Below, one piece after another: positions 7,243 through 38,294 of a stretch of DNA of 38,456 bases. The notes beneath the pieces are model-generated. The model saw only the letters and a list, made by a program, of their open reading frames with translations, was not told the DNA's origin and ran no database searches. The stretch's first letter is position 1. Every line of letters starts with the position of its first letter. The stretch lies in the IMG/VR virus record IMGVR_UViG_3300028610_001711, positions 1 to 38,456 of that record; one strand, given 5' to 3'. The stretch is from a virus. Position numbers and translations under genes: made by a program.

Positions 7243-7252
7243 GAGAAAGAAC

Positions 7253-11220: not shown

Positions 11221-11225
11221 AAACT

Positions 11226-12181: not shown

Positions 12182-12549
12182 TAAAAGATCTTGACTTAAC
12201 TGATGATTATCTTTGGTATAATCCGGTTAACGAGAAGTATCTCACCATAGAGTATTTGACTGAACCACCACCCACCATTAAGGAATTTAGTGAAGTAGAG
12301 CAAAAGCACCTATGGGGATTTGCTTGGGTAGATAAACCAGTAATCACTACATGGATTAGTTTTAAAGGAAAGGAAGCTGATAAGTTAACTACTTTCATAT
12401 CACAAAACCCGGATGGAAAACACGGAATGTTTGTTCCCTTCAAGTTTGTGAGAATTAGGGAAGGGGTTAATATAATCTCAGTTGATCATATACTGAGCGT
12501 GTCCTTCGCAGTTGCTAATTTAGACGATATTGGGGGATTGCATTTGTAA
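12172..12549 (+). CDS. DFVNAF-family paralogue M20
   Basis: A 125-residue protein; the ATG at 12178 overlaps the TGA of M19 in the usual ATGA way and may be the real start, giving 123 residues. DYLWYNPVNEKYLTIEY is block A, GFAWVDKP block B, GMFVPFKFV block C. Block D is weak (VDHILSVSFAVAN). Polar loop EPPPTIKEFSEVEQ between A and B. Confidence 0.78.
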   Translation: MAMIKDLDLTDDYLWYNPVNEKYLTIEYLTEPPPTIKEFSEVEQKHLWGFAWVDKPVITTWISFKGKEADKLTTFISQNPDGKHGMFVPFKFVRIREGVNIISVDHILSVSFAVANLDDIGGLHL

Positions 12550-12578
12550 TCTGGATTTTGTACTGGGATTAAGCTATA

Positions 12579-13061: not shown

Positions 13062-13063
13062 TT

Positions 13064-13735: not shown

Positions 13736-13736
13736 T

Positions 13737-14291
13737 ATGAGCATGATGAAGAGAATACATAAGAAAAGGAAACTTGGGAAACTTGTGAAAATCAACAAAC
13801 CGGTGTACAAGGATACTTTCCTTTCTGAAAGGCCGGAAGAGAATGATAAGGGAGTGGCGATAGCCCGTGGTAATCTATTATACAATACAGAAACAGATAA
13901 GTTTTTGAATACAGTGAATGGGAAGGTTGGTGGAGAATTTTCTTGGGAAGCCCAGAGTGCTTATTTTATATCAACTAGAAACACTGGTTCCGCAGATGAA
14001 AAAGAATTTAACAGGATTGTAAAATTTATCACACCAGAAGAGGGAATACAGTCAGTAATAGTGCCAGTAACCACATATAGACTACGAAGAACGGCATTTA
14101 CATATGAAGTGTATGTGGAAAGAAATTTTGGGTTGGCCTTTGCTTATGTAAAGTTTATACAAGAACAGGCAAGTGAAGGTGTAGCAGGCGATAATGATCC
14201 ACTTAATCAACGAACACTTATTGGTTTTGATCCCGCGCAGGATGGTGCGGATATAACGGTAATGTGTATCGGGATATCAGGTGAAATGTAG
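13737..14291 (+). CDS. DFVNAF-family paralogue M23
   Basis: A 184-residue protein. A very basic head (MKRIHKKRKLGKLVK) precedes RGNLLYNTETDKFLNTV (block A), FSWEAQSAYFI (block B), SVIVPVTTYR (block C) and VERNFGLAFAYVKF (block D). About 45 residues follow block D, ending in the hydrophobic DITVMCIGISGEM. The core pairs best with M19, M22 and M26. Confidence 0.8.
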   Translation: MSMMKRIHKKRKLGKLVKINKPVYKDTFLSERPEENDKGVAIARGNLLYNTETDKFLNTVNGKVGGEFSWEAQSAYFISTRNTGSADEKEFNRIVKFITPEEGIQSVIVPVTTYRLRRTAFTYEVYVERNFGLAFAYVKFIQEQASEGVAGDNDPLNQRTLIGFDPAQDGADITVMCIGISGEM

Positions 14292-14299
14292 AGTAAATT

Positions 14300-14659
14300 A
14301 TGAATACTAGTACGCCCATAGCAAAAAAACGGTTTGCCATTTATCATCTTGGAATGAAAAAATTTCTGTTCATGTTGAGGGAAACACCGCATGGTAGCCC
14401 ATTTACATGGATGCCAAGCAATGGGATATTCTTCACGTTAAATCAAGAGAACATTAGTTCATTTATCGGCTACTTACATAACGATAAGTATAGTAAGATA
14501 GGAACTGTGTGTATTTGGGTGATAAATTTTCTACGAAGGGAAAATAGTTGGAAAGATATTATGGTAGTTCCCTTGGATTTGTTGGAAGTTGGGAGTGATG
14601 AAGTAAACCTGTATGCACCGGATTATGACCGCAGCTATCAGCTATGGCTGGGAAAATGA
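14300..14659 (+). CDS. DFVNAF-family paralogue M24
   Basis: A 119-residue protein. RFAIYHLGMKKFLFML (11-26), FTWMPSNGIFFTL, FLRRENSWKDIMVVPLDL, and a block D reduced to PDYDRSYQLW. It has the same length and spacing as M25 and M17. The end overlaps the next start. Confidence 0.8.
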   Translation: MNTSTPIAKKRFAIYHLGMKKFLFMLRETPHGSPFTWMPSNGIFFTLNQENISSFIGYLHNDKYSKIGTVCIWVINFLRRENSWKDIMVVPLDLLEVGSDEVNLYAPDYDRSYQLWLGK

Positions 14660-14952
14660 CTAAACAGTTCTTTGTGATCTATAATCCAGAGAAGGATAAG
14701 TTTCTCTTGGATGAAACTGACCCGGAACTTCACCGCCCGTATCGGTGGGTGGTTGGCACATCTGGATGTTCCATACTGGCCATAACAGGGGACATGCTTG
14801 ATGGGTTTATTGCAAGAGAATTTGAAACGGCTAATCATATACTTGAGTTTTTGAAAAACCACTGTCCAGATGATGGTATAATGTTGATCCCGATGAATAT
14901 GATAAATGAAGACCGGGCCACGTTTGATTTCAAGCATGGGTTTAAGTTATGA
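14656..14952 (+). CDS. DFVNAF-family paralogue M25
   Basis: A 98-residue protein and the smallest full member, so it may show the minimal fold: QFFVIYNPEKDKFLLDE (block A), YRWVVGTSG (block B), a 40-residue helical middle, DGIMLIPMNM (block C), FDFKHGFKL (block D, at the very end). The ATG at 14656 overlaps the TGA of M24; an in-frame ATG at 14644 would add four residues. Confidence 0.82.
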   Translation: MTKQFFVIYNPEKDKFLLDETDPELHRPYRWVVGTSGCSILAITGDMLDGFIAREFETANHILEFLKNHCPDDGIMLIPMNMINEDRATFDFKHGFKL

Positions 14953-14965
14953 TAGGGAGAACATA

Positions 14966-15532
14966 ATGACAAGAACACGCATAGCAAGAGTAATGCCTAA
15001 AGTGGTTACCGAAATCAGGCGTGGCTATGTTCTTTTTTGCACAGATACGGACAAATTTATGACATATACACCATATACTCACCCGTCATTTTTCTGGGTA
15101 GATGAAACTAGGTATCTGATTAACGAAAATATTATTGACACCGCAAGATGCGTGCTTAGAACATCATCGTTTCAAGCATTTTTGGGTGAGGATAACGTCG
15201 TGTTGGTACCAACTGTGGGGTACTATGGGCCAGATTTACGTAATAAAGCCGGGGATGGGACGCAACGGGATGTGTTTTTTGAGATAGATTTCAGACATTC
15301 GTTTGATATGTGGAAGGAAATACCAAAGATAAAAATGGCACCGGTTCTTAGTAAAAAGTTGAAACACAGTTCGAAGATGTTTTCTGGGCTCAAATTGGAC
15401 GGTATTGAATGGGATTTCACTAAGGGAGTTTCCCCGCATAATAGGCTTGACTCTATTAATATTCTTGACAAGTGGGCACATGACTCTCCACACTTCGATT
15501 TAAACGAGTCAAATGTCCCCGACAACGATTGA
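14966..15532 (+). CDS. DFVNAF-family paralogue M26
   Basis: A 188-residue protein. The ATG at 14966 follows AGGGAGAA; the start at 14906 lies inside M25. RGYVLFCTDTDKFMTY (block A), FFWVDETRYLI (block B), FLGEDNVVLVPTVGYYG (block C), FEIDFRHSFDMW (block D). About 70 further residues contain two more acidic-aromatic stretches (GIEWDFTKGV and SPHFDLNES), which may be decayed repeats of block D or a separate small domain. Confidence 0.82.
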   Translation: MTRTRIARVMPKVVTEIRRGYVLFCTDTDKFMTYTPYTHPSFFWVDETRYLINENIIDTARCVLRTSSFQAFLGEDNVVLVPTVGYYGPDLRNKAGDGTQRDVFFEIDFRHSFDMWKEIPKIKMAPVLSKKLKHSSKMFSGLKLDGIEWDFTKGVSPHNRLDSINILDKWAHDSPHFDLNESNVPDND

Positions 15533-15581
15533 GCATTGTGGATTTTACATCCCATTAGTTTGACAAAATTAGGTGAGAATA

Positions 15582-15956
15582 ATGGAACATCAAAAAGGGT
15601 TTATTTTATACAATTTAAGCAATGAGATGTATCTTGGAAGGTCACTAGCGGCAACCAGTGGGGATACCCACAGATGGGTAAGTGACACGCCCCTGTTACT
15701 ATGTGAGAACGCCTTGGACATGTTATTTAACATCAATTCGTTTATTCCACGGTCACGGTTTCCTAATATGAAAAATACTGAATTTAATGATCATGTCAAG
15801 GAGATTAGGCGGGAAACAAAGTTTGTACTATCTTTTTTAAAGGAACATTCCGATATGGTCGAAATTATGGTGGTTCCAATAGATGTGGAAGGAGATGGAA
15901 CAAGCTATGATATTGATTTTGTTAAAGCTTTTAAATTTGATGTAAATATGGTATAA
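15582..15956 (+). CDS. DFVNAF-family paralogue M27, last of the array
   Basis: A 124-residue protein starting at the ATG at 15582, with AGGTGAGAA at 15571-15579. KGFILYNLSNEMYLGR (6-21), HRWVSDTPLLL, FLKEHSDMVEIMVVPIDVEG, IDFVKAFKFD. It is closer to M17 and M25 than to its neighbour M26, so subfamilies are interleaved along the array. Confidence 0.83.
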   Translation: MEHQKGFILYNLSNEMYLGRSLAATSGDTHRWVSDTPLLLCENALDMLFNINSFIPRSRFPNMKNTEFNDHVKEIRRETKFVLSFLKEHSDMVEIMVVPIDVEGDGTSYDIDFVKAFKFDVNMV

Positions 15957-15989
15957 TAAAAGATGAAGAAAAGTAATCAGGAGAGTAAC

Positions 15990-16280
15990 GTGGATAAAAG
16001 ATATGGTGTTTGGTGCTTTTCAGAACGCGATTTTGAGAATGGTGCCGATATAAGCTACAGTAATGCCATGGGTTTGGCCTTGTTTTGTGTCGAGGAAGAT
16101 GAATTTGGCGTGAAAAATTTTGCTGTTATAGCGATGGACGATAACAAAAACCCCATTTGGCATGAAATGATATGGTGTGGTCAGTTCCATGGATATGATT
16201 TCTTGTACAGAGAATGTATTCGTCTGGGTGAGATTTCAGAACGCGAAGGTTTTGATCCCGAGGATATAGTGTTTATCTAA
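15990..16280 (+). CDS. Small protein of unknown function after the array
   Basis: A 96-residue protein if the GTG at 15990 is the start (CAGGAGAG just upstream); an ATG at 15963 would add nine polar residues but has no ribosome-binding site. TATAAT at 15952-15957 may be a -10 box. It is acidic, with two-strand stretches (GLALFCVEEDEF, FAVIAMDDN) and WHEMIWCGQFHGYDFLYREC. It does not show blocks A-D. The next ATG follows its TAA directly. Confidence 0.7.
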   Translation: MDKRYGVWCFSERDFENGADISYSNAMGLALFCVEEDEFGVKNFAVIAMDDNKNPIWHEMIWCGQFHGYDFLYRECIRLGEISEREGFDPEDIVFI

Positions 16281-26340: not shown

Positions 26341-27864
26341 TTAAGCTGCTTCCACTGCTTCGTAGGCAGCCAAATCATAGAAGCTACACGCATCTGGGAT
26401 GCAGTCACGGGAACCATTAGGTGTCAATATCCAGTGCCAATTTTTTGGCTTATCAGGTACAATCTCGTTACCGAACCCATCAGTTACCACGAAAACAGCT
26501 TCTGGATATATGAATTTAGGATCATTGGTAAGTTCTTCCTGAATACGTTCTTCCAAAATGCTAAAGTATGTGCCACCAAACCCATATAATTTTCTGTCAA
26601 TTAGGTTTGTTTCATAAACCTTAGTGTCAAAACAGAACATCCGCATGTTGAACCGATCAAGGGGCATCCCCTCGGCAATCCCAAAGAACCTATCGGTATA
26701 ACCAGTACATGAACCGGAAGTATCTTGAAAAAACCATACCTCTATCTTATCTATTTCTGGTTTTCTGGTGAGAGTTTCATACTCAGTAGGTAACATCAAC
26801 CCAGTATCTACCATGGTAAAGCGTCTATTTCGGTGTACCCACTGATCTTCCTCAAGATACTCAGGATTCATTTTCTTTCGTGCCCAAGAAGTGACAATAT
26901 GTTCAAATTTGTGTTTCTTTGGTTCTTTCACTTCTTTAGCAAATGTCCAACCTGTACCGGCAGTCGTACCTGCTTGGGTGCCGCCATCTTTACTCGGCTT
27001 ACCCGGCTTACTTTTTCCAGTGGGTTTCACTTCTGGATTCTCTTTCGGGTCACCGTTGCTATTTTCGTTCTCGTTTATGAAGTTTTCAAGAGTCTCTTTT
27101 TCATCACTTGTCAAGTCTTCATCTAACTTACCAATGGCGTCACTGAAATCATCAGAGTACTCATTTGGGTCAAAGTAATCGAATTCATCAGGATCTAGAT
27201 CACCCGGATCACCCTCATCACTCTTATCACCCTTGCCATCATCCTTGCTATCATCACTTTCTCCTTCTCCCTCTTCACCTTCTCCTTCTCCCTCTTCACC
27301 TATTTGATCACCTAAGTCATGATCATCAACAGTCTCAGACTTTCCAGCCATTTCTTGAAATTTCTCTGGTTGTTCTTCGGCCATACGAACTAGAATATTG
27401 AAGTAATATTCATAGTTTTCATCATCCGCGAACGTTTCTGGCAATAATGATTCGAAAACTCTATCTACCCAACAATATTTGTTTTCTGGGTCTACTTCTT
27501 CGCGCTTATAACCATAACGATTAACAAGAGCATGGTTAATAACCAAATCTTGTGCAATGTTGGATATTTTTCGTAACCTTCTTGTTTTTAACTCTCTTGT
27601 TCGTGCACCGTGGTTCAGTGCAATATGAAAACATTCATGTGATATAACAAAACACTTGATAATGAAAGAAAGTCCTTCCCAAAACTCTTTATTTACGATA
27701 AAATCAATACAATCGCCCTTTTTATTGAACAGGACACCGGCAGTGGGAACCCTTTTACTAAAGCGTATACGGCTCATAGTCCACACACGCTCAAACAAAG
27801 CATGATGGACTTCAAGTGCCCTAGCAATTTTAAAGTGTTCTTGATGTGAAAGGCGTTCGCTCAT
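26341..27864 (-). CDS. VWA-domain protein with a metallopeptidase-like N-terminus
   Basis: A 507-residue protein. Residues 60-115 hold HECFH (76-80, HExxH-type) and a helix with NIAQDLVINHAL, as in the DUF2201 metallopeptidase-like domain. Residues 185-250 are a strongly acidic, low-complexity linker. The C-terminal third is a VWA-like domain with the metal site DTSGS (381-385). Such proteins pair with MoxR ATPases to remodel or load metal onto client complexes. The partner ATPase is the divergent neighbour. The linker shares a recently copied segment with the gene at 21102. Confidence 0.82.
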   Translation of the reverse strand: MSERLSHQEHFKIARALEVHHALFERVWTMSRIRFSKRVPTAGVLFNKKGDCIDFIVNKEFWEGLSFIIKCFVISHECFHIALNHGARTRELKTRRLRKISNIAQDLVINHALVNRYGYKREEVDPENKYCWVDRVFESLLPETFADDENYEYYFNILVRMAEEQPEKFQEMAGKSETVDDHDLGDQIGEEGEGEGEEGEGESDDSKDDGKGDKSDEGDPGDLDPDEFDYFDPNEYSDDFSDAIGKLDEDLTSDEKETLENFINENENSNGDPKENPEVKPTGKSKPGKPSKDGGTQAGTTAGTGWTFAKEVKEPKKHKFEHIVTSWARKKMNPEYLEEDQWVHRNRRFTMVDTGLMLPTEYETLTRKPEIDKIEVWFFQDTSGSCTGYTDRFFGIAEGMPLDRFNMRMFCFDTKVYETNLIDRKLYGFGGTYFSILEERIQEELTNDPKFIYPEAVFVVTDGFGNEIVPDKPKNWHWILTPNGSRDCIPDACSFYDLAAYEAVEAA

Positions 27865-27890
27865 ATTTGTTCTCCGCTCAAGTAGTACTT

Positions 27891-27919
27891 ATTATAGGCG
27901 GTTATAAATAAAAAAGCAA
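27891..27919 (-). promoter_or_regulatory. Sigma-70 promoter of the VWA gene
   Basis: TTGCTT, a 17-base spacer, perfect TATAAT, read on the minus strand, 27 bases before the ATG at 27864. It lies back to back with the promoter of the MoxR gene. Confidence 0.6.
27903..27910 (+). promoter_or_regulatory. T4-type late promoter octamer TATAAATA
   Basis: Exact match on the plus strand, 80 bases before the ATG at 27990, farther than the other octamers. It falls in the spacer of the minus-strand promoter, so it may be coincidental. Confidence 0.35.
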
Positions 27920-27925
27920 TAGAGG

Positions 27926-27954
27926 TTGACATCTTTTTTAAAAAAGTCTATTAT
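27926..27954 (+). promoter_or_regulatory. Strong sigma-70 promoter of the MoxR gene
   Basis: TTGACA (27926-27931), 17 bases, TATTAT (27949-27954), 36 bases before the ATG. GTCTA TTATA TAGAC (27946-27960) forms a small dyad over the -10 box, a possible operator. Host polymerase should read it early. Confidence 0.7.
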
Positions 27955-27989
27955 ATAGACAAATGGAGAAACGAAAGGAAATATGAACT

Positions 27990-29390
27990 ATGATTAGTGA
28001 TAAAAAATTAGACTTCTATATCGAAAATGGAATGAACGTTCTGTTTATTGGTAGACATGGGGTTGGTAAAACTGCCATGGGTAAGGCAGCATTTGAAAGG
28101 CATAACCTTAAGTGGAAATATTTTTCTGCTGCTACTATGGACCCTTGGGTTGATTTCGTAGGTGTTCCAAAAGAAACCATAGACAAAGAAACCGGGGAGA
28201 ATTATATCGAACTGGTTCGTCCCAAAGGTTTCCACAACGATGAAGTAGAAGCAATCTTCATGGATGAACTTAATCGCGCAAAGGATAAAGTTCGTAATGC
28301 GGTGATGGAATTGATCCAGTTTCGGTCTATCAACGGCGTGAAATTCACCAAATTGAAAATGATTTGGGCTGCTATTAATCCTGAAGATGAAGAAGACGAA
28401 GATCTGAAATATGATGTTGAGCGGTTGGACCCGGCACAGAAAGATAGGTTCCACGTTCATATACATGTTCCATACGAACCATCCAAGAAGTATTTCAAGA
28501 GAACCTTTGGAACTTCCGGTATTGGTGCCGTTGAATGGTGGGATGGGCTGAGTAATGAACAAAATAAATTAGTGTCCCCTCGTCGTTTGGAATATGCCAT
28601 TAACTTCCACCAAAGGGGTGGTGATCTTCGAGACATCATGCCGAATGATGAATTGAACTTAGACCAACTGCGTCAACGTTTGGTTGGTGGTTCCATTAAA
28701 CTGAAACTGAAAGAACTGTTTGATGATAACGACGACGTAAAAGCCAGCGAAACTTTCAGCAACATCAACTTTACAACAGACGCCATCCAATTAATTTTGG
28801 AAGACACGGAGTACATCGAAAGGTTCATGAAATATGTGCCCAAAGATATGATTAGTAAATTGATTACTGATAACGACGGTGAACACATTGAGAAAGTAGT
28901 TGGGCACACTGAGGCAGAGGTAATTGTACCGATTTTGAGTTCCCTCATTGCGTCAAACAGTTTGAGACGAACGGTTCTGCAAAAGGTTACGGTGTGTGCT
29001 GATAACCGTGGGCTGGACCTGACTTCTGAAAATGCCTTTGACACGGCAATTAAAGAAGGTCTGGAGAACATCACCAAGACCCGTCCTGACCGATACAATG
29101 CTTTACATGGTGTCAGCCAAAACTTTAATAAGAGTGCTACGTTAGAAGTGTACACGCAAGCACTGTATTTTGTGACGCAAATGATCTATCATACACAGGA
29201 TGGGTCATTGAATGACGAGAATAAGCCATTTAACCAAATTGGTCGGCATATTCTGGCAGAACTTGAGGACTCCTTGAAGTCTAATCACAATACTTCTGTT
29301 ATGGCTACTTGGAAGACACTGAAGGATAAATATACTGACAAAACACGTAGTGATAGGATAGAGTCTTTCTTGAAGAAATTTCTCAAGTAA
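27990..29390 (+). CDS. MoxR-type AAA+ ATPase
   Basis: A 466-residue protein. Walker A is GRHGVGKT (21-28), Walker B AIFMDELNR (88-96), and IWAAINPEDEED supplies the sensor-1 Asn near 125. Arg fingers and the lid follow around LDPAQKDRFHVHIHV. The long C-terminus is helical and unlike short MoxR proteins (about 330 aa). MoxR ATPases act with VWA proteins as chaperones for metal insertion or complex assembly; the VWA partner is encoded back to back. Pairs of this kind occur in large phages, but the client is unknown. Confidence 0.85.
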   Translation: MISDKKLDFYIENGMNVLFIGRHGVGKTAMGKAAFERHNLKWKYFSAATMDPWVDFVGVPKETIDKETGENYIELVRPKGFHNDEVEAIFMDELNRAKDKVRNAVMELIQFRSINGVKFTKLKMIWAAINPEDEEDEDLKYDVERLDPAQKDRFHVHIHVPYEPSKKYFKRTFGTSGIGAVEWWDGLSNEQNKLVSPRRLEYAINFHQRGGDLRDIMPNDELNLDQLRQRLVGGSIKLKLKELFDDNDDVKASETFSNINFTTDAIQLILEDTEYIERFMKYVPKDMISKLITDNDGEHIEKVVGHTEAEVIVPILSSLIASNSLRRTVLQKVTVCADNRGLDLTSENAFDTAIKEGLENITKTRPDRYNALHGVSQNFNKSATLEVYTQALYFVTQMIYHTQDGSLNDENKPFNQIGRHILAELEDSLKSNHNTSVMATWKTLKDKYTDKTRSDRIESFLKKFLK

Positions 29391-30594: not shown

Positions 30595-32463
30595 TCATAT
30601 TGCATACTTAGCTTCTAATTCTTCTTGTACTGCTGTAATATTTGCTCCCGATAAATCAGAAGTAAATACTACCAATTCAAATAAAGCACCTTCAATAGAT
30701 ATAGAATTATCATAATTTGTAAGAATCGTACCAAGATCCCAATTGTTTGATCCAGCATCACCAGTCACGTTACCGAGATCAGATATTGTAAATTTACTTG
30801 TTGCATCCCCTCTAAATTCAGAAGTAAATAATCGAGCATTTATATCATATGTTTGAGCTGAACGTAAATATGTACCCGCCCACATATACCATTCATCATT
30901 ATTACCATCTTCTGTAGCTATTGAAACAATATTTCCTGAATCAGAACGATTATGCCAGATAACTGTGATTGCTGATGGGCTTGAATTTGATGGTTTAAAT
31001 ACTGTAAATACAACAAATGGTTCACCAATATCAATACCACTCGTTGTTTCTAATCCCGCAGATCCAGAAGAACTAACACCTGTATGACCATTTAATGTAG
31101 ATGTAGTGAGATTTGCTCCTGTTCCAACTACAACATCAAAATCACCAGCAGAACCAGCAGAACCAGAATTAGTCCATTCTGTAACTGGTGCACTTCCTAC
31201 AATTCCTTCTTCTTTATACCAATATGCAGGATCGAGATCTGCAATAGCTGAGGGGACTGTTGGTGTTGGCGTATTAGTTGGTGTAACAACCGGTGTATCA
31301 GTCGCTGAAACTGTTGGTGTAGCCGTAGTTGTTGGTGTAACAGCCGGAGTATCCGAAACAGTAGCTGTTACCGTTGGTGTAGCCGTAGTTGTTGGTGTAA
31401 CAGCCGGAGTATCCGAAATAGTTGGTGTTACTGTTGGTGTCACTGTGGATGTGACCGTAACTGTTGGTGTAACAGCCGGAGTATCCGAAATAGTTGGTGT
31501 TACTGTTGGTGTCACTGTGGATGTGACCGTAACTGTTGGTGTTACTGTTGATGTCATTGTTGGTGTTACTGTTGATGTGACCGTAACTGTTGGTGTTACT
31601 GTTGATGTGACCGTAACTGTTGGTGTCACGGTGTTGGTTGGTGTTTCTGTAGTTGTTGGTGAAGGAGTGTTTGTGGGTTGTGGTGATGGCTCCTCAGTAC
31701 TCGTTGGGGTAACTGTTGATGTAGGAGTAGGAGTATTTGTAACTGTCACCGTTGGTGTCACCGTGATTGTTGGTGTCACGGTGTTGGTTGGTGTAACAAC
31801 CGGTGTATCCGAAATTGTCGGAGTGACGGTTGGTGTAATAGTTACTGTGGCTGTAACAGTTGGTGTAATAGTTGGTGTTGCCGTAGTTGTTGGTGTTGCC
31901 GTAGTAGTTGGTGTCACCTCTGGTGTAACGGATGGTATAACAGATGTGGTTGGTGTAATTGTTGGCGATATCGGGGGTGCTGTCAAACTAGGAGTAACCG
32001 TGGGGGTTGCTGGCTGGTCAGTAAAGCATCCACCGCCACCCTGTACATTAGTATCCTCATCTTCTACGGATTGTGGTATAGCAACATTCTGTGTAATTTG
32101 CAGTGCAACCCAAGAAGTTTTAAAGAATTCCTTAAATTCTTTTTTATTCACAAATGCATCATTAAGAACTTGAAAGAAAATGTGGTTTACATCTTCAACT
32201 TGAAAACTATCATATATTGCTTGCATGGTAGCAACGATATCTTCTGGGGTAGAGAAGTTGACATTGTTATTAACGAAGGAGTCAATATCAATCCCACTAA
32301 ATTCCCTAGTAGAATCAGTTAAGATACCAATAACAGTAGATTGTGCTAAATCAGGATCAACAAAAATCTGATCATTACCTAATCCAAAACGAGTGTCAGC
32401 ATCAAACCCTGCATCATACAGGATTCGTTCTAATGATGGTAATGTTTTGGATCTATCAGTCAT
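30595..32463 (-). CDS. Thr-Pro-rich adhesin / fibre-like protein with a lectin-type C-terminus
   Basis: A 622-residue protein. A folded head (1-135) contains SFVNNNVNFSTPEDIVATMQ and other helical stretches typical of a virion attachment part. Residues 150-405 are a mucin-like run of PT(V/I)T(V/A/P)T repeats. The C-terminal 215 residues, from LDPAYWYKEEG to EELEAKYAI, read as a concanavalin/LamG-type beta sandwich (FVVFTVFKPSNSSPSAITVI, LFELVVFTSDLSG). It likely binds a host surface glycan. The antisense strand is open too because of the repeat. A CATAAATA octamer lies 25 bases upstream. Confidence 0.75.
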   Translation of the reverse strand: MTDRSKTLPSLERILYDAGFDADTRFGLGNDQIFVDPDLAQSTVIGILTDSTREFSGIDIDSFVNNNVNFSTPEDIVATMQAIYDSFQVEDVNHIFFQVLNDAFVNKKEFKEFFKTSWVALQITQNVAIPQSVEDEDTNVQGGGGCFTDQPATPTVTPSLTAPPISPTITPTTSVIPSVTPEVTPTTTATPTTTATPTITPTVTATVTITPTVTPTISDTPVVTPTNTVTPTITVTPTVTVTNTPTPTSTVTPTSTEEPSPQPTNTPSPTTTETPTNTVTPTVTVTSTVTPTVTVTSTVTPTMTSTVTPTVTVTSTVTPTVTPTISDTPAVTPTVTVTSTVTPTVTPTISDTPAVTPTTTATPTVTATVSDTPAVTPTTTATPTVSATDTPVVTPTNTPTPTVPSAIADLDPAYWYKEEGIVGSAPVTEWTNSGSAGSAGDFDVVVGTGANLTTSTLNGHTGVSSSGSAGLETTSGIDIGEPFVVFTVFKPSNSSPSAITVIWHNRSDSGNIVSIATEDGNNDEWYMWAGTYLRSAQTYDINARLFTSEFRGDATSKFTISDLGNVTGDAGSNNWDLGTILTNYDNSISIEGALFELVVFTSDLSGANITAVQEELEAKYAI

Positions 32464-32487
32464 AATTTAAATTCAATATAATTATAT

Positions 32488-32495
32488 TATTTATG
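32488..32495 (-). promoter_or_regulatory. T4-type late promoter octamer CATAAATA
   Basis: One base off TATAAATA, on the minus strand, 25 bases before the ATG at 32463, and next to an ATATAATTATAT palindrome. Confidence 0.5.
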
Positions 32496-32496
32496 G

Positions 32497-33621
32497 CTAT
32501 GCACCACCAAATGTAATACCACTTATCCACCCAGTGCAATTATCAACTGGTGTTCCGCCAGCACCAATTGCTATTTCAAGAGTCCATTGTGTATCTGCTT
32601 CCCCTGCACCACTAATCGGATCGTAAACGCAACGATTTCCCCACTCTATGGAACCACTAGCTGGCATTTGTATCCAAGCACTATATATTCCTGTTTTAGA
32701 ACCAGTTACATACCATTCAGCCGTAACTATTACTCTAAACCAATAAATTGTTGGATCTGCTGGCGGTGTTGTATTCAACCAAGTAGATGGAAAATTATCA
32801 GAATAAGAAACATGTGGTGGATTGTCAATTGGTGTAATTATTGTACCGTTTGAATTAAATCTAACCCACGTAAGCATGGTACCAGCATCTGAACGATTAC
32901 CGGTTACGTAATAACTACCACCATTTAATGGCAATGGTTCTGTTGGGGTTGGTGTAACTGCTGGTGTTCCCGGTGGTGTTGCTGTTGGTGTTGGTGTAGA
33001 AGTTACTGCCGGTGTAGAAGTTACTGCCGGTGTTGGCGAACTTGTGACTGTCACTGTTGGGGTTGGTGTTAGTGATGATGCCGGTGCCGGTGTTGCTGTT
33101 GCTGTCACTTGGGCCGTCGGTGTCACCGTCTCCGTTGGTGTCACTGTTGGCGTGACTGCTGGCGAACCACCCGGTGTTCCCGGTGGAGTACTTGCTGGTG
33201 TATTTGGTGGTGTATTTGGTGGTGTTCCCGGTGGTGTTCCCGGTGGTGTATCAGTTGGTGTCACAGTGGACGTGGCTGAAAATGTTGGTGTCACAGTGGA
33301 CGTGGGAGTTACCGTGGGTGTTACAGTAGAAGTTTGTGTATTTGTTGGGGTAAGAGTAGGGGTTGGCGTAACTGTACTCGTTTCTGTTACTGTATTTGTT
33401 GGTGTCACCCAGTCTGTTATTACTGATTCTGAAAAATCAACCAATAGCTGGGTACCAACATCAAATGGATTATTAGATGCTGCATCAGGATCTACAAAGT
33501 TGTATTGCTCAAGTATCTCCAAAATTTTGGTATGATACGGCTTAACTTCATTGAAATATGTTATAAATGATTGTATGGGTGTAGAAATCCCAGAATCTTC
33601 TGCACCGGTATTATCAGTCAT
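32497..33621 (-). CDS. Second Thr-Pro-rich virion protein
   Basis: A 374-residue protein. The head includes ITYFNEVKPYHTKILEILEQYNFVD; VKPYHTKI is a motif I recall from structural proteins of large tailed phages. Residues 75-225 are TPT repeats, here mixed with PGTPPGTPPNTPPNTPASTP (Pro/Gly-rich). The C-terminal 145 residues form a beta-rich domain (YVTGNRSDAGTMLTWVRFNS, WNxx-like WGNRCVYDP). Same plan as its neighbour but with unrelated ends, so head and tip were exchanged around a common linker. Exact late octamer 25 bases upstream. Confidence 0.75.
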   Translation of the reverse strand: MTDNTGAEDSGISTPIQSFITYFNEVKPYHTKILEILEQYNFVDPDAASNNPFDVGTQLLVDFSESVITDWVTPTNTVTETSTVTPTPTLTPTNTQTSTVTPTVTPTSTVTPTFSATSTVTPTDTPPGTPPGTPPNTPPNTPASTPPGTPGGSPAVTPTVTPTETVTPTAQVTATATPAPASSLTPTPTVTVTSSPTPAVTSTPAVTSTPTPTATPPGTPAVTPTPTEPLPLNGGSYYVTGNRSDAGTMLTWVRFNSNGTIITPIDNPPHVSYSDNFPSTWLNTTPPADPTIYWFRVIVTAEWYVTGSKTGIYSAWIQMPASGSIEWGNRCVYDPISGAGEADTQWTLEIAIGAGGTPVDNCTGWISGITFGGA

Positions 33622-34162: not shown

Positions 34163-35209
34163 TCACTGCAAAAAATTATAATTTTTCAACATGAACTCTC
34201 TAAGGCGAAGCTTGGCTTCAAAATCATAATAGGTCTTATCTACTATTGTCTTGAGTACGTACAGTTTGCCAAATTTATTTATAGATTTACATATATCAGT
34301 ACAGGGCAGTGTATCTGGGAGAGAGATACCCCACCCAAGGTCAATGGCTTGTTGAGCTAGGTTCATTCCATCTTTATTATAGTCAGGGATAACTACTTTG
34401 TTCCTTCTAGATCTATCCAGAAGCAATACCTTACCCTTTTTCATAGCGTTTGCAAGTACGGCCACACCATTGACATGCCATGAATCAAAAAACCCTTCTG
34501 TTATATACAATGGGATTTCTGGGTCACTCACATACAAATTATCCATCCCAAACATGACAGACTGGCTATCCTCTATGGTTACAGTGATGTATTTTTTGAC
34601 ACTCTCACCAACGAATATCCTCGCTTGCCAGTAAATCATGCGGTCATTGTAATATGATGGTATAATAATTCTTGGCCGGAGAGACCTAGATAAATGTATA
34701 TCCCCATCTAAGGTAGAGTTGGTCTTCCCCGTGGATAAGAAAAACGGATAATCGTCTTGGGTCATCTTGTATTTTTCCCACAAGAAATCCCTAGCCTCCT
34801 CTGCCAATATGTCATCGTCATCGAATTTGTTCATTAGTTTGAAGAAGTCTGGTATGGGTAAGTTGGGCAAATGAACTTTTGTTGGACGCTTTAGAACTTT
34901 GCCTTTCTCTGTCTTGATTTTTGAGGTAATAAGGGCATTTATATCCTTGGGTGGTATACCAAAAGAACGGAAGATGTCGTACATATTCTTAGAATGTGGA
35001 GAATCACGGGTTGGATCAAAATTACCATCTATGCCACAATTAAAGCAGTTGTAGAAGCATATGTCCTCTTCAAACAACCATCCTCCACGAGGTCCCTTGG
35101 TATGCGTACCATCACCACAAACCTCACAAAATATCTTGTTCCAGCCCTTAGCTGATGGAGAATGTACGAGAGGCACATGAGTTCGTACTATGTCTTCGAT
35201 AGTATCCAT
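34163..35209 (-). CDS. DNA primase, T4 gp61 type
   Basis: A 348-residue protein, close to the 342 of T4 gp61. The zinc ribbon is C28-x2-C31 (CEVCGDG), then a GGW strand and C55-x2-C58 (CFNCG). The Toprim domain is marked by YITEGFFDS (catalytic Glu) and VVIPDYNKDG (Asp pair). It makes RNA primers for the lagging strand together with the replicative helicase gp41, whose gene is not in this window. Like gp61 it lacks an own helicase domain. No late octamer is seen upstream, fitting an early replication gene. Confidence 0.85.
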   Translation of the reverse strand: MDTIEDIVRTHVPLVHSPSAKGWNKIFCEVCGDGTHTKGPRGGWLFEEDICFYNCFNCGIDGNFDPTRDSPHSKNMYDIFRSFGIPPKDINALITSKIKTEKGKVLKRPTKVHLPNLPIPDFFKLMNKFDDDDILAEEARDFLWEKYKMTQDDYPFFLSTGKTNSTLDGDIHLSRSLRPRIIIPSYYNDRMIYWQARIFVGESVKKYITVTIEDSQSVMFGMDNLYVSDPEIPLYITEGFFDSWHVNGVAVLANAMKKGKVLLLDRSRRNKVVIPDYNKDGMNLAQQAIDLGWGISLPDTLPCTDICKSINKFGKLYVLKTIVDKTYYDFEAKLRLREFMLKNYNFLQ

Positions 35210-35269
35210 GCGCGGAGTATAGCATATTACTGGAAGTTTAGCTATTTCTTCTTTTTACATGAAGACCGT

Positions 35270-35938
35270 TTAGGTTTTGGGTTTGGGTTTTGAGTTTTTC
35301 TCAATCACTTCTTCTTCATCTATATCATAGTTAAATTCGACAATTTTATCATCACCGCGTTGCTTAAGGCGCTCTATAAGTTCTACTGAACCAAACCAAA
35401 AATCTTTATCCTCACAGACGGCCTGTATTTCCTCCTCTGTAAGGAAATCCTTATAAAAGGAATGAGCAAGGTCCTTAAAATATTTCTCTGAGAATTTAAC
35501 TCTCTTAGCTACTTCACCACCCTTACCAATCGCGCCGTGGCTATAGTTATGAATCATAAAGGAACAATTGTCATTGACAATATAATAGTCCCCGGAGAGA
35601 AATATGAATGTCCCGGCTGAACATACCTCACCTTCTATGACGGTAGTAATTTCCGCCGGGGACTTGGAAATAGCTGATATTATCTGAATAGTGGTATTTA
35701 AATCACCGCCCGGTGTGTTAAGATAAATGAATATTTTATCATGTGGTTCAGATGTTTTGATGATGTTGAGCATGTCAACATATCTGTCAACTTCATCACT
35801 TATTTCCCCTGTGAGGTAGAAATGGTGTATGGTTACTGGGATTACTTGAGTATAATGCTTTATGGACTTTTCTTCCAAAAGACCACTTAATAACGGTAAT
35901 GCACTTAAAATCTCGTCTTCCTCAGAATTTGTCATCAA
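35270..35938 (-). CDS. ClpP-like serine protease
   Basis: A 222-residue protein with the ClpP core. IYLNTPGGDL (71-80) is the oxyanion strand, GEVCSAG (103-109) holds the nucleophile Ser 107, MIHNYSHG (128-135) the His 130, and EDKDFWFG (176-183) the Asp 179. The triad is complete. The C-terminus is longer and more charged than in bacterial ClpP. It could make a phage peptidase barrel or join host ClpX or ClpA. It lies directly downstream of, and in line with, the tmRNA, whose tag ends ALAA, a ClpXP signal. Confidence 0.82.
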   Translation of the reverse strand: MMTNSEEDEILSALPLLSGLLEEKSIKHYTQVIPVTIHHFYLTGEISDEVDRYVDMLNIIKTSEPHDKIFIYLNTPGGDLNTTIQIISAISKSPAEITTVIEGEVCSAGTFIFLSGDYYIVNDNCSFMIHNYSHGAIGKGGEVAKRVKFSEKYFKDLAHSFYKDFLTEEEIQAVCEDKDFWFGSVELIERLKQRGDDKIVEFNYDIDEEEVIEKNSKPKPKT

Positions 35939-35971
35939 ATGGATCTCCTAGATATCTTTGGCTGATAAAAA

Positions 35972-35979
35972 TATTTATC
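35972..35979 (-). promoter_or_regulatory. T4-type late promoter octamer GATAAATA
   Basis: One base off, 34 bases before the ATG of the ClpP-like gene, inside the perfect inverted repeat CTGATAAA...TTTATCAG (35962-35981). Confidence 0.45.
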
Positions 35980-36021
35980 AGATCGGAATGCGAGTGAAAA
36001 TTTTTCGAAATTAAACCTCCT

Positions 36022-36051
36022 AAAATCAAACGGCCCCAAAGGAGCCGTTTG
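36022..36051 (-). terminator. Terminator of the tmRNA
   Basis: On the minus strand CAAACGGCTCC pairs with GGGGCCGTTTG around a TTT loop, an 11-base-pair stem with one G-U, followed by ATTTT. It ends the tmRNA transcript before the ClpP-like gene. Part of the stem may double as a tmRNA pseudoknot element. Confidence 0.75.
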
Positions 36052-36312
36052 GCAGAAACTTGGGTAATAAGGCTTTCCAAACCCCAGAAAATTATGCAGC
36101 AAGAGCGAACTCTTCTTCAAAATCTTCGGTATAGCTTTCATCATTTGCAGATGTTTTATTTCTCGATATACGGCTCTTGAAACCGGATAGCCCAATAACC
36201 TATTCATCCCCTGTCGAAACCAAGGTCACCCCCATAAAAATATGCTTGGTGGAGGTGGAGGAAATCGAATCCTCGTCCAGAGCAACTTTCAATTAGAAAG
36301 TTTACTATCATT
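36025..36312 (-). ncRNA. ssrA: Circularly permuted (two-piece) tmRNA
   Basis: Read on the minus strand. First comes the acceptor piece: hairpin AACTTTC/GAAAGTT, then CTCTGGAC, the T arm GAGGA-UUCGAUU-UCCUC (36258-36274), CACCUCC (36251-36257) and ACCA ending at 36247. A 13-base spacer follows, then the coding piece from 36233: GGGGGUG, UUCGAC and the tag frame. GGGGGUG pairs fully with CACCUCC, and the third pair is G-U, the alanyl-tRNA synthetase identity pair. CAGGG can pair with CUCUG as helix P2. The tag frame (36092-36148) encodes ANDESYTEDFEEEFALAA and stop. This order, 3' part before 5' part, is that of permuted tmRNAs, which are cut into two pieces. It rescues stalled ribosomes and tags the product for proteolysis. 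Confidence 0.92.
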
Positions 36313-36319
36313 AAGTTAT

Positions 36320-36348
36320 ATATTACACCATGCAAAAAGGTTTGTCAA
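36320..36348 (-). promoter_or_regulatory. Strong sigma-70 promoter of the tmRNA
   Basis: TTGACA (36343-36348), 17 bases, TAATAT (36320-36325), read on the minus strand. Transcription should begin near 36312, directly before the acceptor-piece hairpin. Host polymerase can read it without phage factors. Confidence 0.8.
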
Positions 36349-36360
36349 ATGGTTTTTGAA

Positions 36361-36624
36361 CTAACTCACATGAAGTAAACTGTCAATAGATATCTCCTCA
36401 AATGAATCCCATTTACCTATATCAGTGATTTTGCGTTGCTCGGTATCTACCATTTCACCAGTCCCATGCCCAAAATCGTAATGGGCAATCTCATTTTCCT
36501 CATAAAAAACATGTACGGTGTCTGTTTCCTTCTCCAATTTGTATGTTAACTCATATGGATAGTGCGTAATAACAGCTCTGGCCCAATCTGCGAATGTTGT
36601 TTGGTGGTTACCGCTCATTCTCAT
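36361..36624 (-). CDS. Small hypothetical protein upstream of the tmRNA
   Basis: An 87-residue acidic protein with a helical front (TTFADWARAVITHYPYELTY) and strands (TVHVFYEENEIAHYDFG). It overlaps the end of the Acb1-like gene by four bases, so it is coupled to it. Its end lies 12 bases before the tmRNA promoter. Function unknown. Confidence 0.68.
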   Translation of the reverse strand: MRMSGNHQTTFADWARAVITHYPYELTYKLEKETDTVHVFYEENEIAHYDFGHGTGEMVDTEQRKITDIGKWDSFEEISIDSLLHVS

Positions 36625-37124
36625 TTGTACTTACCATCTAATGCTAATTCTTCTTCGTATTCCCTGTCTATCTCCAGAGAGCCAAGAAGCTCCCCCATGT
36701 TGTGGCCCTTATAGTCAAAATCCCCACAATCATAAGATAATGTCATATGTGGGATAAACTCAGGGAAATCATAGGTAGCCTTGTGTTCATCCATGATTTC
36801 TTCGTGTCTATTAACGAGATCTGGGGCATCCATTATCACCACCAGAACGTTATTTTCCTCATCACCACTAGAAAAAATGTCCAGCTTTTTAGCCTTGATC
36901 TCAATTGGATCATCCAACTTTCCGCGTGGTTTGAAATCAGGAAGATGCTTACTAGAATGAATGACAGTCAGATGTATCTCTGATTCTTCAACTGGTTCAG
37001 GCACATTCAATTTTTCAATTACATCCAAAACCTTTTCTATTGACTCTTTAGAAAGTCTAACCCCGACGTATGTTCCCTTCTTTGGGGATTGCTTTTTTTC
37101 AGTTACGATTTGGGATAATTTCAT
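36621..37124 (-). CDS. 2H phosphoesterase, Acb1-like (anti-CBASS candidate)
   Basis: A 167-residue protein. Two His-x-Thr motifs, IHLTVIHS (47-54) and PHMTLSYD (126-133), mark the 2H phosphoesterase fold. The layout (TYVGVRLSKES at the front, RHEEIMDEHKATYDFPEFIP before the second motif, EYEEEL near the end) agrees with my memory of T4 57B/Acb1, which hydrolyses the cyclic nucleotide signals of CBASS defence. It opens with MKLSQIVTE, like other late proteins here. It starts one base downstream of the next gene's end. Confidence 0.7.
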   Translation of the reverse strand: MKLSQIVTEKKQSPKKGTYVGVRLSKESIEKVLDVIEKLNVPEPVEESEIHLTVIHSSKHLPDFKPRGKLDDPIEIKAKKLDIFSSGDEENNVLVVIMDAPDLVNRHEEIMDEHKATYDFPEFIPHMTLSYDCGDFDYKGHNMGELLGSLEIDREYEEELALDGKYK

Positions 37125-37125
37125 T

Positions 37126-37395
37126 TCACTTCACCGAATCCTCTTCCGTTATGGGAACTAATATGTTCCCATATAACTCAACTATCTTCTCAACCAACAC
37201 ATCAACGGTGCCTTCATCTCTTTCAAGCAAGGCAGTTTGCATGTTTCTACCATGTGTGTATCTTTGGGTTTCAGATCTATGGGTGCTTATTGACAAATAA
37301 AAGTTCCCTTGATCATAGGCAACAGAGTATACTAAATCCTCTCCCAAACGCTCAATTAACTTTTTATGTAGAATCAGCGTGTCTTTAAATTTCAT
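37126..37395 (-). CDS. Small hypothetical protein
   Basis: An 89-residue protein starting MKFKDTLILHKKL, with AAGGAAAC upstream of the ATG. LVYSVAYDQGNFYLSIST and LVEKIVELYGNILVPI suggest a small alpha/beta fold. The last residues (TEEDSVK) end one base before the Acb1-like gene starts, and its start overlaps the DHFR gene. Confidence 0.65.
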   Translation of the reverse strand: MKFKDTLILHKKLIERLGEDLVYSVAYDQGNFYLSISTHRSETQRYTHGRNMQTALLERDEGTVDVLVEKIVELYGNILVPITEEDSVK

Positions 37396-37912
37396 TTTGT
37401 TTCCTTTTGTAACATTCGTATATTAAACTGGAACCTAATTCTGATGGTTGTGACGTTTCTATTTTAAAGTCTTTGCCCACACTATTGGCACGCCATGAAT
37501 CAAAAATACCAGTGAGAGATACATCACAGCGATAATATCCCGGTATTCTAGTAATATATACGTGGTCGGCAAAGGATAGTCCATCCGTGTAAATAGACTC
37601 ACCACCAATAAGGAATATAGACTCATTTGTGGCCAATTTGAGAGCCTCTGGGAGGCTTTTAGCTAGTTCCGCACCCATTGTTATCAGTTCGGGGTTGCGG
37701 CTCACAACGATGCTCTGACGGCCTTTGAGAAGGGCTTTACGCTCTCCAAGCACCTTCACCATGCTATCGTATGTTTTCCTGCCCATAATACAGGTAGAAC
37801 CCTTTGTTGTTTTAGCAAAAAACTGCATATCTTCCTTGAAATGCCAAGGAATACCACCATCTTTACCTATGCCTAGAGCATCATCAATCGCCACTATTAT
37901 CGATATCGTCAT
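37385..37912 (-). CDS. Dihydrofolate reductase
   Basis: A 175-residue protein from the ATG at 37912 (GAGGAGAA upstream); longer in-frame starts up to 37975 lie inside the previous gene. IIVAIDDALGIGKDGGIPWHFKEDMQFF (first 32 residues) holds the active-site acid D29 and the Met20-type loop, CIMGRKTYDSM (41-51) and SRNPE the NADPH site, and FLIGGESIY the Gly-Gly pair. It reduces dihydrofolate for thymidylate synthesis, as T4 Frd does. No thymidylate synthase is in the window. Confidence 0.88.
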   Translation of the reverse strand: MTISIIVAIDDALGIGKDGGIPWHFKEDMQFFAKTTKGSTCIMGRKTYDSMVKVLGERKALLKGRQSIVVSRNPELITMGAELAKSLPEALKLATNESIFLIGGESIYTDGLSFADHVYITRIPGYYRCDVSLTGIFDSWRANSVGKDFKIETSQPSELGSSLIYECYKRKQNEI

Positions 37913-38294
37913 CGTCGTTCTCCTCAAAAATATCATTGTGCCATCCGGTAAGAATGGGAACTTCGTCAGGTTCATCCACGTCAGGTTCGTCAGGTTCAGC
38001 TATGTCAGGCTCATCAGGCTCATCCAACATATCATCTATCATATACAGATCATTCAGTTCTACCCATTTCCTCTCAGTACTGGGTGGTTCTGGATGTTGT
38101 GCAGTTCTTTTGGGGGATAATTGTATCTCCACCATCATGGGCACAATCTTGGGAGCACGGGCAGCGGTTCGTTTAGATCTGCGCTGTGGGAGAGCACTAG
38201 CATCTTCGCGTTTTTTGGCAGTTCTACCTGTCAAAATATATTCAAGACCTTCATAGATGTAAGTCTTTGACATATCAAGGATTAGTTCATCCAT
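37884..38294 (-). CDS. Acidic hypothetical late protein
   Basis: A 136-residue protein from the ATG at 38294 (another ATG at 38297). The N-terminal half is basic (KKREDASALPQRRSKRTAAR), the C-terminal half carries repeated DEPDEPD units and a DDDD run near the end, so it is probably disordered with opposite charges in its two halves. It overlaps the DHFR start by 29 bases. Confidence 0.65.
   Translation of the reverse strand: MDELILDMSKTYIYEGLEYILTGRTAKKREDASALPQRRSKRTAARAPKIVPMMVEIQLSPKRTAQHPEPPSTERKWVELNDLYMIDDMLDEPDEPDIAEPDEPDVDEPDEVPILTGWHNDIFEENDDDDIDNSGD

What the first reader, a model, noticed from the sequence alone, without database searches (positions are those of the whole stretch)
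35270..36312. tmRNA directly upstream of a phage ClpP: a possible phage tag-and-degrade set
The tag ends in ALAA, the degron read by ClpX, and the next co-directional gene is a ClpP-like protease with a full Ser-His-Asp triad. Rescue of ribosomes stalled on degraded host mRNA during infection, with phage-controlled disposal of tagged peptides, would be a coherent function. The link is by proximity only; a terminator separates the two transcripts.
Basis: inference. Interest (0 to 1): 0.72.

Follow-up and report, generated by a model that had tools for sequence, protein, structure and literature searches.

The report
Phage ribosome-rescue RNA beside a ClpP protease
A large bacterial virus carries its own gene for the RNA that frees stuck ribosomes and tags their unfinished proteins for destruction, beside a protein-shredding enzyme gene; the pair recurs in related viruses, but whether the enzyme shreds the tagged proteins is unproven.

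Summary
In detail: a permuted tmRNA (RF04321, 117.7 bits; tag ANDESYTEDFEEEFALAA) lies 66 b upstream of a ClpP-fold protease with intact triad. In the window's ClpP clade (13 entries) 8 have a permuted tmRNA within 2.7 kb of clpP, XacN1 has it ~49 kb away and 4 have none. A second phage group (ClpP 26-30% identical) has it upstream within 4 kb in 48 of 53 adequate loci; two isolates carry both unlinked. Of 77 other ClpP records none has one over cut-off. One isolate, Phosso, also encodes ClpX and a ClpA-like unfoldase with IGF loops, and its tmRNA is of another (alpha) type. Against a specific link: the adjacency sits in inherited synteny, no unfoldase passed the cut-off in clade 1, no SmpB was found, and four of nine ClpX-docking positions are lost throughout clade 1, three of them also in most other phage ClpPs. 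Separate S77 prohead proteases make a virion role unlikely. Best reading: a functional rescue RNA feeding host ClpXP, with phage ClpP as a co-selected, separately transcribed protease whose part in tag disposal is unproven.

The parts
36320..36348 (-). sigma-70-like promoter of the tmRNA, TTGACA-17-TAATAT
   Evidence: consensus match only (22 such sites in 4.5 kb against 14.0 expected in shuffles)
36026..36309 (-). permuted (two-piece) tmRNA gene, beta type; ARAGORN bounds 36001-36339
36247..36257 (-). 3' acceptor strand CACCTCC plus ACCA, which comes first in the permuted gene
36227..36233 (-). 5' acceptor strand GGGGGTG; pairs with the 3' strand with G3-U70
36092..36148 (-). tag reading frame ANDESYTEDFEEEFALAA and stop
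36027..36051 (-). strong hairpin at the tmRNA 3' end, possible terminator with a short T-run
   Evidence: not listed as a terminator
35972..35978 (-). ATAAATA, core of a T4-type late promoter (motif recalled), 43 b upstream of the clpP ATG
35270..35935 (-). ClpP-fold serine protease, 221 aa (ATG start; the TTG ORF begins at 35938)
34163..35209 (-). DNA primase, the most constant neighbour of this clpP
36621..37124 (-). Acb1-like / 2H RNA ligase-like protein, part of the conserved block
37385..37975 (-). dihydrofolate reductase, part of the conserved block

Best explanation
The RNA is a working, phage-encoded two-piece tmRNA. It is charged with alanine by the host AlaRS, bound by host SmpB, and frees ribosomes stalled on broken or unfinished messages during infection, ending the nascent chains in ...ALAA. 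Those tagged chains most likely go to the host's own ClpXP. The neighbouring ClpP is a genuine, active-site-complete ClpP-fold protease of the phage, transcribed separately and kept mainly in a replication-gene block beside primase. It has been co-selected with a tmRNA in two phage groups, probably as part of one translation and proteostasis set, but it is not shown to be the enzyme that takes the tags. Shown by computation: gene identity, fold, triad, altered cleft, co-occurrence. Inferred: activity, host partners, destination of the tag.
For: tmRNA identity and completeness. G3-U70, the alanine identity pair (recalled), stands in the best-scoring acceptor register of 9 of 9 clade-1 tmRNAs in a scan that does not favour it (8 of 9), while the stems change on both strands. 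Tag ends: ALAA in 8 of 9 clade-1 and 53 of 53 clade-2. Co-occurrence: clade 1, 8 of 13 within 2.7 kb plus XacN1 unlinked; clade 2, 47 of 53 adequate loci within 4 kb by ARAGORN plus L258 by covariance model, 16 of 16 IMG/VR records and both isolates; 0 of 77 other ClpP records over cut-off, one below it. Phosso's tmRNA is alpha type, unlike the beta type elsewhere, which suggests a separate acquisition. SmpB 0 of 13, SspB 0 of 20. ClpP fold Z 19.4, rmsd 2.0 A over 157-159 residues. Large hydrophobic residues at nine cleft positions: 7-9 (mean 8.1) in 80 cellular ClpPs, 2-5 (mean 3.5) in 12 clade-1 ClpPs. S77 prohead protease elsewhere in 8 of 13 records.
Against: Nothing shows that the tmRNA is transcribed, processed or charged. 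One relative (L133) has a tag ending AQAA. In clade 2 the unbiased scan gave G3-U70 in 34 of 51; other registers or poor candidates scored best in the rest. Host and host ClpX are unknown. The window's own ClpP keeps 5 of 9 cleft residues, two of the three named in PMC4416901 among them, so docking is weakened on paper, not excluded. Phosso has its own ClpX beside a ClpP with a likewise altered cleft. The co-occurrence counts are not independent events: records share ancestry.
Confidence: 0.48

Rival explanations
1. One reading: phage ClpP assembles with host ClpX (or ClpA) and degrades the phage-tagged chains, a phage-controlled tag-and-degrade set.
For: Conserved linkage in two groups; triad intact in 12 of 12 clade-1 proteins; tags keep ALAA; ClpP fold aligning to ClpP of a ClpX-ClpP-ssrA structure; the window ClpP keeps 5 of 9 cleft residues; Phosso carries tmRNA, ClpP, ClpX (573.5 bits, over its cut-off of 359) and a ClpA-like protein, both with an IGF loop.
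Against: Positions 48, 82, 92 and 114 are large hydrophobic in 0 of 12, with E or D at 92 in 12 of 12; no unfoldase over cut-off in 13 clade-1 records or in 17 of 18 clade-2 records; tmRNA and clpP often apart.
Confidence: 0.25
2. Neighbours only: the tmRNA sits in a conserved T4-like block near PhoH, DHFR, ligase, clpP and primase and was inherited there; the two genes have nothing to do with each other.
For: The same gene order recurs with and without the tmRNA; primase follows clpP in 12 of 12 clade-1 neighbourhoods compared, in L134 and L217 with the tmRNA between; in clade 2 a 217-aa gene is closer to the tmRNA (median 212 b, 44 loci) than clpP (1384 b, 53 loci), with PhoH about as near (1774 b, 31 loci).
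Against: Co-occurrence also without linkage in XacN1, BUCT-ZZ01 and Phosso, in Phosso with another tmRNA type; the tmRNA changed sides of clpP yet stayed beside it; none over cut-off in 77 other ClpP records.
Confidence: 0.21
3. The ClpP-like protein is a virion (head) maturation protease.
For: The best NCBIfam model for the window protein is 'head maturation protease, ClpP-related' (70.2 bits, below its cut-off of 120); several weaker PHROG hits are head maturation proteases.
Against: Best PHROG is ATP-dependent protease at 3.8e-55; the gene lies among replication genes; an S77 prohead protease is present elsewhere in 8 of 13 records, including the seven longest, though not in the 47-kb record of the window's own population.
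Confidence: 0.04

Closest known systems
Permuted two-piece tmRNA (Rfam RF04321; RF01850 beta_tmRNA)
   Same: Permuted order, acceptor pairing with G3-U70, tag frame ending ALAA, full-length match to the beta model.
   Different: Phage-borne with no phage SmpB found; tag of 18 aa, rich in acidic residues; several relatives have intervening segments of over 100 b.
Phage tmRNAs, e.g. methylophage Melnitz (PMC9004378, passages) and huge phages with tmRNA and SmpB (PMC7162821, passages)
   Same: Lytic phage with a complete two-piece tmRNA; for Melnitz a role in tagging host proteins for degradation and amino-acid recycling is already proposed.
   Different: Here a ClpP gene lies beside it; the words Clp and protease do not occur in either main text.
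Sinorhizobium phages Phosso (this work) and AP-J-162 (PMC11242549, passages)
   Same: Jumbo phages with a tmRNA and a phage ClpX next to IF-3 (AP-J-162 as published; Phosso); Phosso also has ClpP of the clade-2 kind.
   Different: Genes unlinked in Phosso, tmRNA of alpha type there; clade 1 has no unfoldase over cut-off.
Phage ClpP-like proteases (PHROG 1827), e.g. rv5/V5, ICP1, T5-like
   Same: ClpP-like proteins found by similarity to the window's; rv5 and ICP1 also have PhoH close by.
   Different: No permuted tmRNA over cut-off in rv5, ICP1, T5_ev219, K571 or Atu_ph07.
Cellular ClpP and mixed ClpP1P2 particles of Mycobacterium tuberculosis (PMC4416901, passages)
   Same: Fold and triad; precedent for a ClpP face that does not dock the chaperone but works in a mixed particle.
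   Different: Phage protein about 19% identical to E. coli ClpP; partner unknown.

Membership tests
Permuted tmRNA | Covariance-model match over the curated threshold | tested here: met
   RF04321 117.7 bits against 47; RF01850 110.2 against 84
Permuted tmRNA | 3' acceptor strand precedes 5' strand; 7-bp acceptor with G3-U70 | tested here: met
Permuted tmRNA | Tag reading frame ending in the ClpX degron | tested here: met
   ANDESYTEDFEEEFALAA*
Permuted tmRNA | SmpB available | tested here: inconclusive
   No phage SmpB in 13 clade-1 records, several of them fragments, nor in Phosso or BUCT-ZZ01 among phage records matched by E. coli SmpB; host SmpB would serve (inference). A phage-borne SmpB is not a defining feature of the RNA family
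Permuted tmRNA | Transcript is cleaved, charged and tags proteins | not testable with these tools
   needs RNA and protein experiments
ClpP (peptidase family S14; family number recalled) | Sequence and fold | tested here: met
   PF00574 60.8 bits, cut-off 20.2; Z 19.4, rmsd 2.0. The NCBIfam ClpP models it matches all stay below their cut-offs
ClpP (peptidase family S14; family number recalled) | Ser-His-Asp triad | tested here: met
   12 of 12 clade-1 sequences aligned to E. coli S97/H122/D171
ClpP that docks ClpX/ClpA | Hydrophobic docking cleft | tested here: inconclusive
   Positions 48, 82, 92, 114 lost (0 of 12 each), 60, 62 and 112 kept (12, 11 and 11 of 12); window 5 of 9; a sequence proxy, not a binding test
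Phage-encoded complete Clp machine | Phage ClpX/ClpA unfoldase | tested here: not met
   Clade 1: PF07724 over cut-off in 0 of 13 records, three weak matches below it; several records are fragments. Met in Phosso only (1 of 18 clade-2 records)
Head maturation protease | Gene in morphogenesis region, the phage's only prohead protease | tested here: not met
   separate S77 in 8 of 13; replication block; NCBIfam head-maturation model below cut-off

The most novel reading that the evidence does not exclude
Phages own a trans-translation and proteolysis pathway: nearly complete in Phosso-type phages (tmRNA, ClpP, ClpX and a ClpA-like unfoldase; SmpB from the host) and cut down to tmRNA plus ClpP in the window's lineage, where phage ClpP joins host ClpP in mixed particles, the host ring docks ClpX that reads the phage tag, and the phage ring, whose face has lost much of the cleft, changes what is cut. 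Ribosome-rescue waste would then be disposed of under phage control.
Probability: 0.16. Interest if true: 0.85.

Novelty: new variant of a known kind. Interest (0 to 1): 0.6.

Why it matters
Phage tmRNAs and phage ClpPs are each known, but why lytic phages keep them is an open question. Two phage groups that pair them, one of them common in IMG/VR (323 confirmed ClpP matches), and an isolate with ClpX as well, make it testable in laboratory systems. They also give a concrete prediction about the protease: intact active site, altered ClpX-docking face.

Tried and rejected
Virion-maturation protease: disfavoured by the best PHROG, gene location and a separate S77 protease, although the best NCBIfam model, below its cut-off, is a ClpP-related head maturation protease. 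Standard one-piece tmRNA in 13 clade-1 records: no match over cut-off; I take the many sub-threshold hits to be tRNAs and parts of the permuted genes, without checking each. tmRNA as an integration scar: not pursued; full-length genes do not look like fragments (inference). DNA relatives of window 34163-37975 among phage isolates: none. A first search with the window ClpP alone found only two records, both with identical ClpP. The XacN1 paper has no hit for tmRNA, Clp, ssrA or transfer-messenger. The trees support pairs well (L132+L133, L134+L217, L145+L214, RAS14+XacN1; window+L131 in the primase tree); deeper branching is unresolved and a distant outgroup fell inside, so I did not reconstruct gain and loss.

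The cleft claim is softened (window keeps 5 of 9). Searches added Phosso's ClpX and ClpA-like proteins, the SmpB search and tmRNA types; because of them I moved the direct model from 0.20 to 0.25, the best explanation from 0.52 to 0.48, neighbours-only from 0.24 to 0.21, head protease from 0.03 to 0.04, the novel case (restated) from 0.10 to 0.16 and interest from 0.55 to 0.6.

One search kept the best 80 of 83; the best 80 of 323. Clade-2 proximity is counted on the 53 of 80 loci with at least 2.6 kb upstream; 21 of the 27 loci without an ARAGORN tmRNA have less. ARAGORN missed tmRNAs that the covariance model found in L133, L258 and Phosso. The HMM that sets clade 1 apart was built from nine of its own members. 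In one search a control protein (L235) was read in the wrong frame; one search corrects it and adds 80 bacterial ClpPs. That control is beta- and gammaproteobacterial only. Cleft positions other than Y74/Y76/F96 (precursor numbering; 60/62/82 mature) are recalled; positions 48 and 49 align weakly (clade-2 position 48 reads F or L but N for L241). SmpB was searched by profile only in clade 1. The background rate for ATAAATA is genome-wide and so too low for AT-rich gaps between genes.

Papers: PMC9004378, PMC11242549, PMC11915505, PMC5964084, PMC5587285, PMC12656738, PMC11273794, PMC12837969, PMC7162821, PMC4416901 and PMC10638403 were seen as passages; PMC5852040 was searched for four terms with no hit; others in listings only. 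That the tmRNA-ClpP pairing was not found in print rests in an open-licence library; of the longer lists I saw 30 of 97, 25 of 47, 20 of 69 and 12 of 109.

Full report
What is there. The window is a whole IMG/VR virus record of 38,456 b, probably a fragment of a larger phage (inferred from relatives of 315-385 kb). On the minus strand lies a permuted tmRNA: ARAGORN 36001-36339 with tag ANDESYTEDFEEEFALAA, RF04321 117.7 bits and RF01850 beta_tmRNA over its full length. Downstream and co-directional is a ClpP-like gene, best started at ATG 35935, then a DNA primase. The tmRNA has a TTGACA-17-TAATAT promoter-like site, a kind of match that is common in the region (22 found, 14.0 expected), and a strong 3' hairpin with a short T-run. 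The clpP gene has its own Shine-Dalgarno sequence and an ATAAATA motif upstream. They look like separate transcription units; transcription itself was not tested.

Is the tmRNA sound? The two acceptor strands pair over 7 bp with G3-U70. Among nine clade-1 tmRNAs the stems differ, with matching changes on both strands, and G3-U70 stands in the best-scoring register of 9 of 9 in a scan that scores G-U below Watson-Crick pairs (equal-scoring placements occurred in 8 of 9 and were not examined; 8 of 9). In clade 2 the same scan gives 34 of 51. Tags end ALAA in 8 of 9 clade-1 tmRNAs; L133 ends AQAA. In clade 2, 53 of 53 ARAGORN tags end ALAA. Such preservation in divergent genes argues for function (inference).

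What is the protease? Pfam CLP_protease, 60.8 bits, and PHROG 1827 ATP-dependent protease, 3.8e-55; the best NCBIfam model, below its cut-off, is a ClpP-related head maturation protease. An AlphaFold2 model from 61 phage sequences (mean pLDDT 88.2) aligns to solved ClpPs at Z 19.4, rmsd 2.0 A over 157-159 residues, including ClpP of a ClpX-ClpP-ssrA complex (Foldseek). The triad is intact in 12 of 12 clade-1 sequences. Eight of 13 clade-1 records, including the seven longest, hold a separate S77 prohead protease; the five without it are records of 27-130 kb, one of them from the window's own population. A virion role is therefore unlikely.

Survey, clade 1. A gap in HMM score (266.8 bits and above against 197.6 and below) sets this clade apart: the window population (L002 and L003 encode an identical ClpP), L131-L134, L145, L214-L217, XacN1, RAS14 and CM1, 13 entries in all. 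RAS14 and CM1 have identical ClpP in the alignment. A permuted tmRNA lies within 2.7 kb of clpP in 8 of 13: upstream in the window, L131, L132, L133 and L215, downstream in L134 and L217, and 2.7 kb upstream in L145. XacN1 has two copies, the nearer ~49 kb from clpP, one in each long terminal repeat (repeat length from PMC11273794). L214 (350-kb record), L216 (27-kb record), RAS14 and CM1 have none. No standard tmRNA reached the cut-off in 13 records.

Survey, clade 2. A different ClpP, 26.5-30.1% identical to the window's in an alignment of 80, came up through a tmRNA locus (L099). Of 80 loci fetched, 53 have an ARAGORN tmRNA. Of the 53 loci with at least 2.6 kb upstream, 43 have it within 2.6 kb on the same strand and 47 within 4 kb; in L258 the covariance model adds one 2.3 kb upstream, 48 of 53. 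The model finds it in 16 of 16 IMG/VR records tested and in both nearest isolates, BUCT-ZZ01 (~41 kb from clpP) and Phosso (~234 kb). L099 has a gp32-type single-strand binding protein and a helicase loader.

tmRNA types and Phosso. Beta_tmRNA is over its cut-off in the window, in 4 of 8 further clade-1 loci (below it in 3, not listed in 1), in 4 of 4 clade-2 IMG/VR loci and in BUCT-ZZ01. Phosso's is alpha type, is not annotated in its record, and has a tag candidate ANDNVSTKVALAA. Phosso also encodes ClpX (NCBIfam 573.5 bits against a cut-off of 359; 55.8% identical to E. coli ClpX) and a ClpA-like protein (892 bits, below its cut-off of 993), both with an IGF loop. Its clpX lies next to IF-3, as published for AP-J-162, which also has a tmRNA (PMC11242549). 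So tmRNA, ClpP and unfoldases do meet in one phage, unlinked. No other of 18 clade-2 records had an unfoldase over cut-off.

Controls. Outside clade 1, searches tested 45 and 32 other ClpP records: 0 of 77 over the cut-off, one sub-threshold hit; many are fragments. K571, rv5/V5, T5_ev219 and Atu_ph07: 0 of 4; ICP1, counted in the 32, none. Atu_ph07 has ClpP and ClpX but no permuted tmRNA over cut-off. The other way round, of 119 viral stretches with a permuted-tmRNA pattern 3 hold a clade-1-like ClpP ORF. Of 31 such records of 30 kb or more, 8 have a CLP_protease; by the coordinates only L099 has it within 4 kb, the other seven 15 kb or more away.

Linkage or function? Two results weaken a specific link. 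In clade 1 the block PhoH, DHFR, 2H protein, ligase, clpP, primase recurs with or without the tmRNA, and primase follows clpP in 12 of 12 neighbourhoods compared. In clade 2 the tmRNA's median gap is 212 b to a 217-aa gene, 1384 b to clpP and 1774 b to PhoH. Two results support it: the tmRNA changed sides of clpP but stayed beside it, and three isolates keep both genes unlinked, one with a tmRNA of another type. The two clades share PhoH, a 5'-nucleotidase and at least one further gene nearby but not ligase or primase, so common descent of the neighbourhood is not excluded.

Could phage ClpP take the tags? In clade 1 no SmpB (0 of 13), no AAA_2 unfoldase over cut-off (0 of 13, three weak matches below it) and no SspB (none in the 20 clade-1 and clade-2 records) was found. 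E. coli SmpB matches 66 phage records; none of XacN1, RAS14, CM1, BUCT-ZZ01 or Phosso is among the 60 listed, and the tally of organism names leaves no room for them in the other 6. Host factors would be needed. ClpX docks by loops in hydrophobic clefts of ClpP (PMC10638403, passages); PMC4416901 names E. coli Y74, Y76 and F96 in the patch (positions 60, 62, 82 in mature numbering). Large hydrophobic residues stand at 82, 92 and 114 in 80, 78 and 79 of 80 cellular ClpPs but in 0 of 12 clade-1 proteins, with E or D at 92 in all 12; positions 60, 62 and 112 stay hydrophobic in 12, 11 and 11 of 12. Over nine positions cellular ClpPs have 7-9, clade 1 has 2-5, the window 5, clade 2 has 5 and 51 other phage ClpPs 0-5. 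The altered cleft is thus a trait of phage ClpPs in general, not of the tmRNA carriers, and Phosso pairs such a ClpP with its own IGF-bearing ClpX. Simple docking is doubtful, not excluded. M. tuberculosis ClpP1P2, where only one face docks, is the precedent for the mixed-particle idea.

Timing. ATAAATA, the core of T4-type late promoters (recalled), lies within 80 b upstream of the tmRNA model start in 6 of 8 linked clade-1 loci (not the window or L217; nor in XacN1) and within 100 b upstream of clpP in 7 of 12; the genome-wide background is 2.8% and 3.6%. This suggests, no more, that in most relatives the tmRNA is a late gene, and clpP in many.

Verdict. Observation confirmed; interpretation partly supported. 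Novelty lies in the recurring pairing, not in either part. The pairing was not found in print in the ten library searches listed under Tried and rejected.

Noticed in passing
window 2176-16000, + strand: A long run of small ORFs that look like diverged paralogues of one another (recurring GYxLY...KYL...W and DFVNAFKF motifs), by eye from the ORF list.
   Followed up: no
window 30595-33621, - strand: Two proteins rich in TPTVTPT repeats downstream of the primase; a similar gene is kept in this place in most relatives.
   Followed up: partly
window 26341-29390: A divergent pair: an AAA ATPase and a DUF2201 protein (putative metallopeptidase domain), also paired in L131, L145 and L214.
   Followed up: partly
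L133 tmRNA, 9190-9529: Tag ends AQAA instead of ALAA.
   Followed up: partly
L133:5671-8427: The NAD ligase is split into two ORFs about 830 b apart, possibly by an insert.
   Followed up: no
L007:2840-3253 (Xanthomonas phage XacN1): A GOLLD RNA (227 bits) and tRNAs lie close to the XacN1 tmRNA.
   Followed up: no
L134:10782-10820 and L217:10977-11015: The long intervening segments of these two permuted tmRNAs share two identical stretches of 15 and 13 b, although such segments are normally cut out.
   Followed up: partly
window 4869-5369: A phage sigma-factor-like protein (PF04542; PHROG 1740), possibly the late sigma factor.
   Followed up: partly
L035, L073, L075, L101 records: Viral records with a permuted tmRNA and a cellular-type ClpP (261.6 bits), roughly 20 kb apart.
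   Followed up: partly
Prevotella phages Lak-B (MK250020-MK250028): Several Lak-B phages match E. coli ClpX and SmpB; whether they also carry a tmRNA and ClpP was not tested.
   Followed up: no
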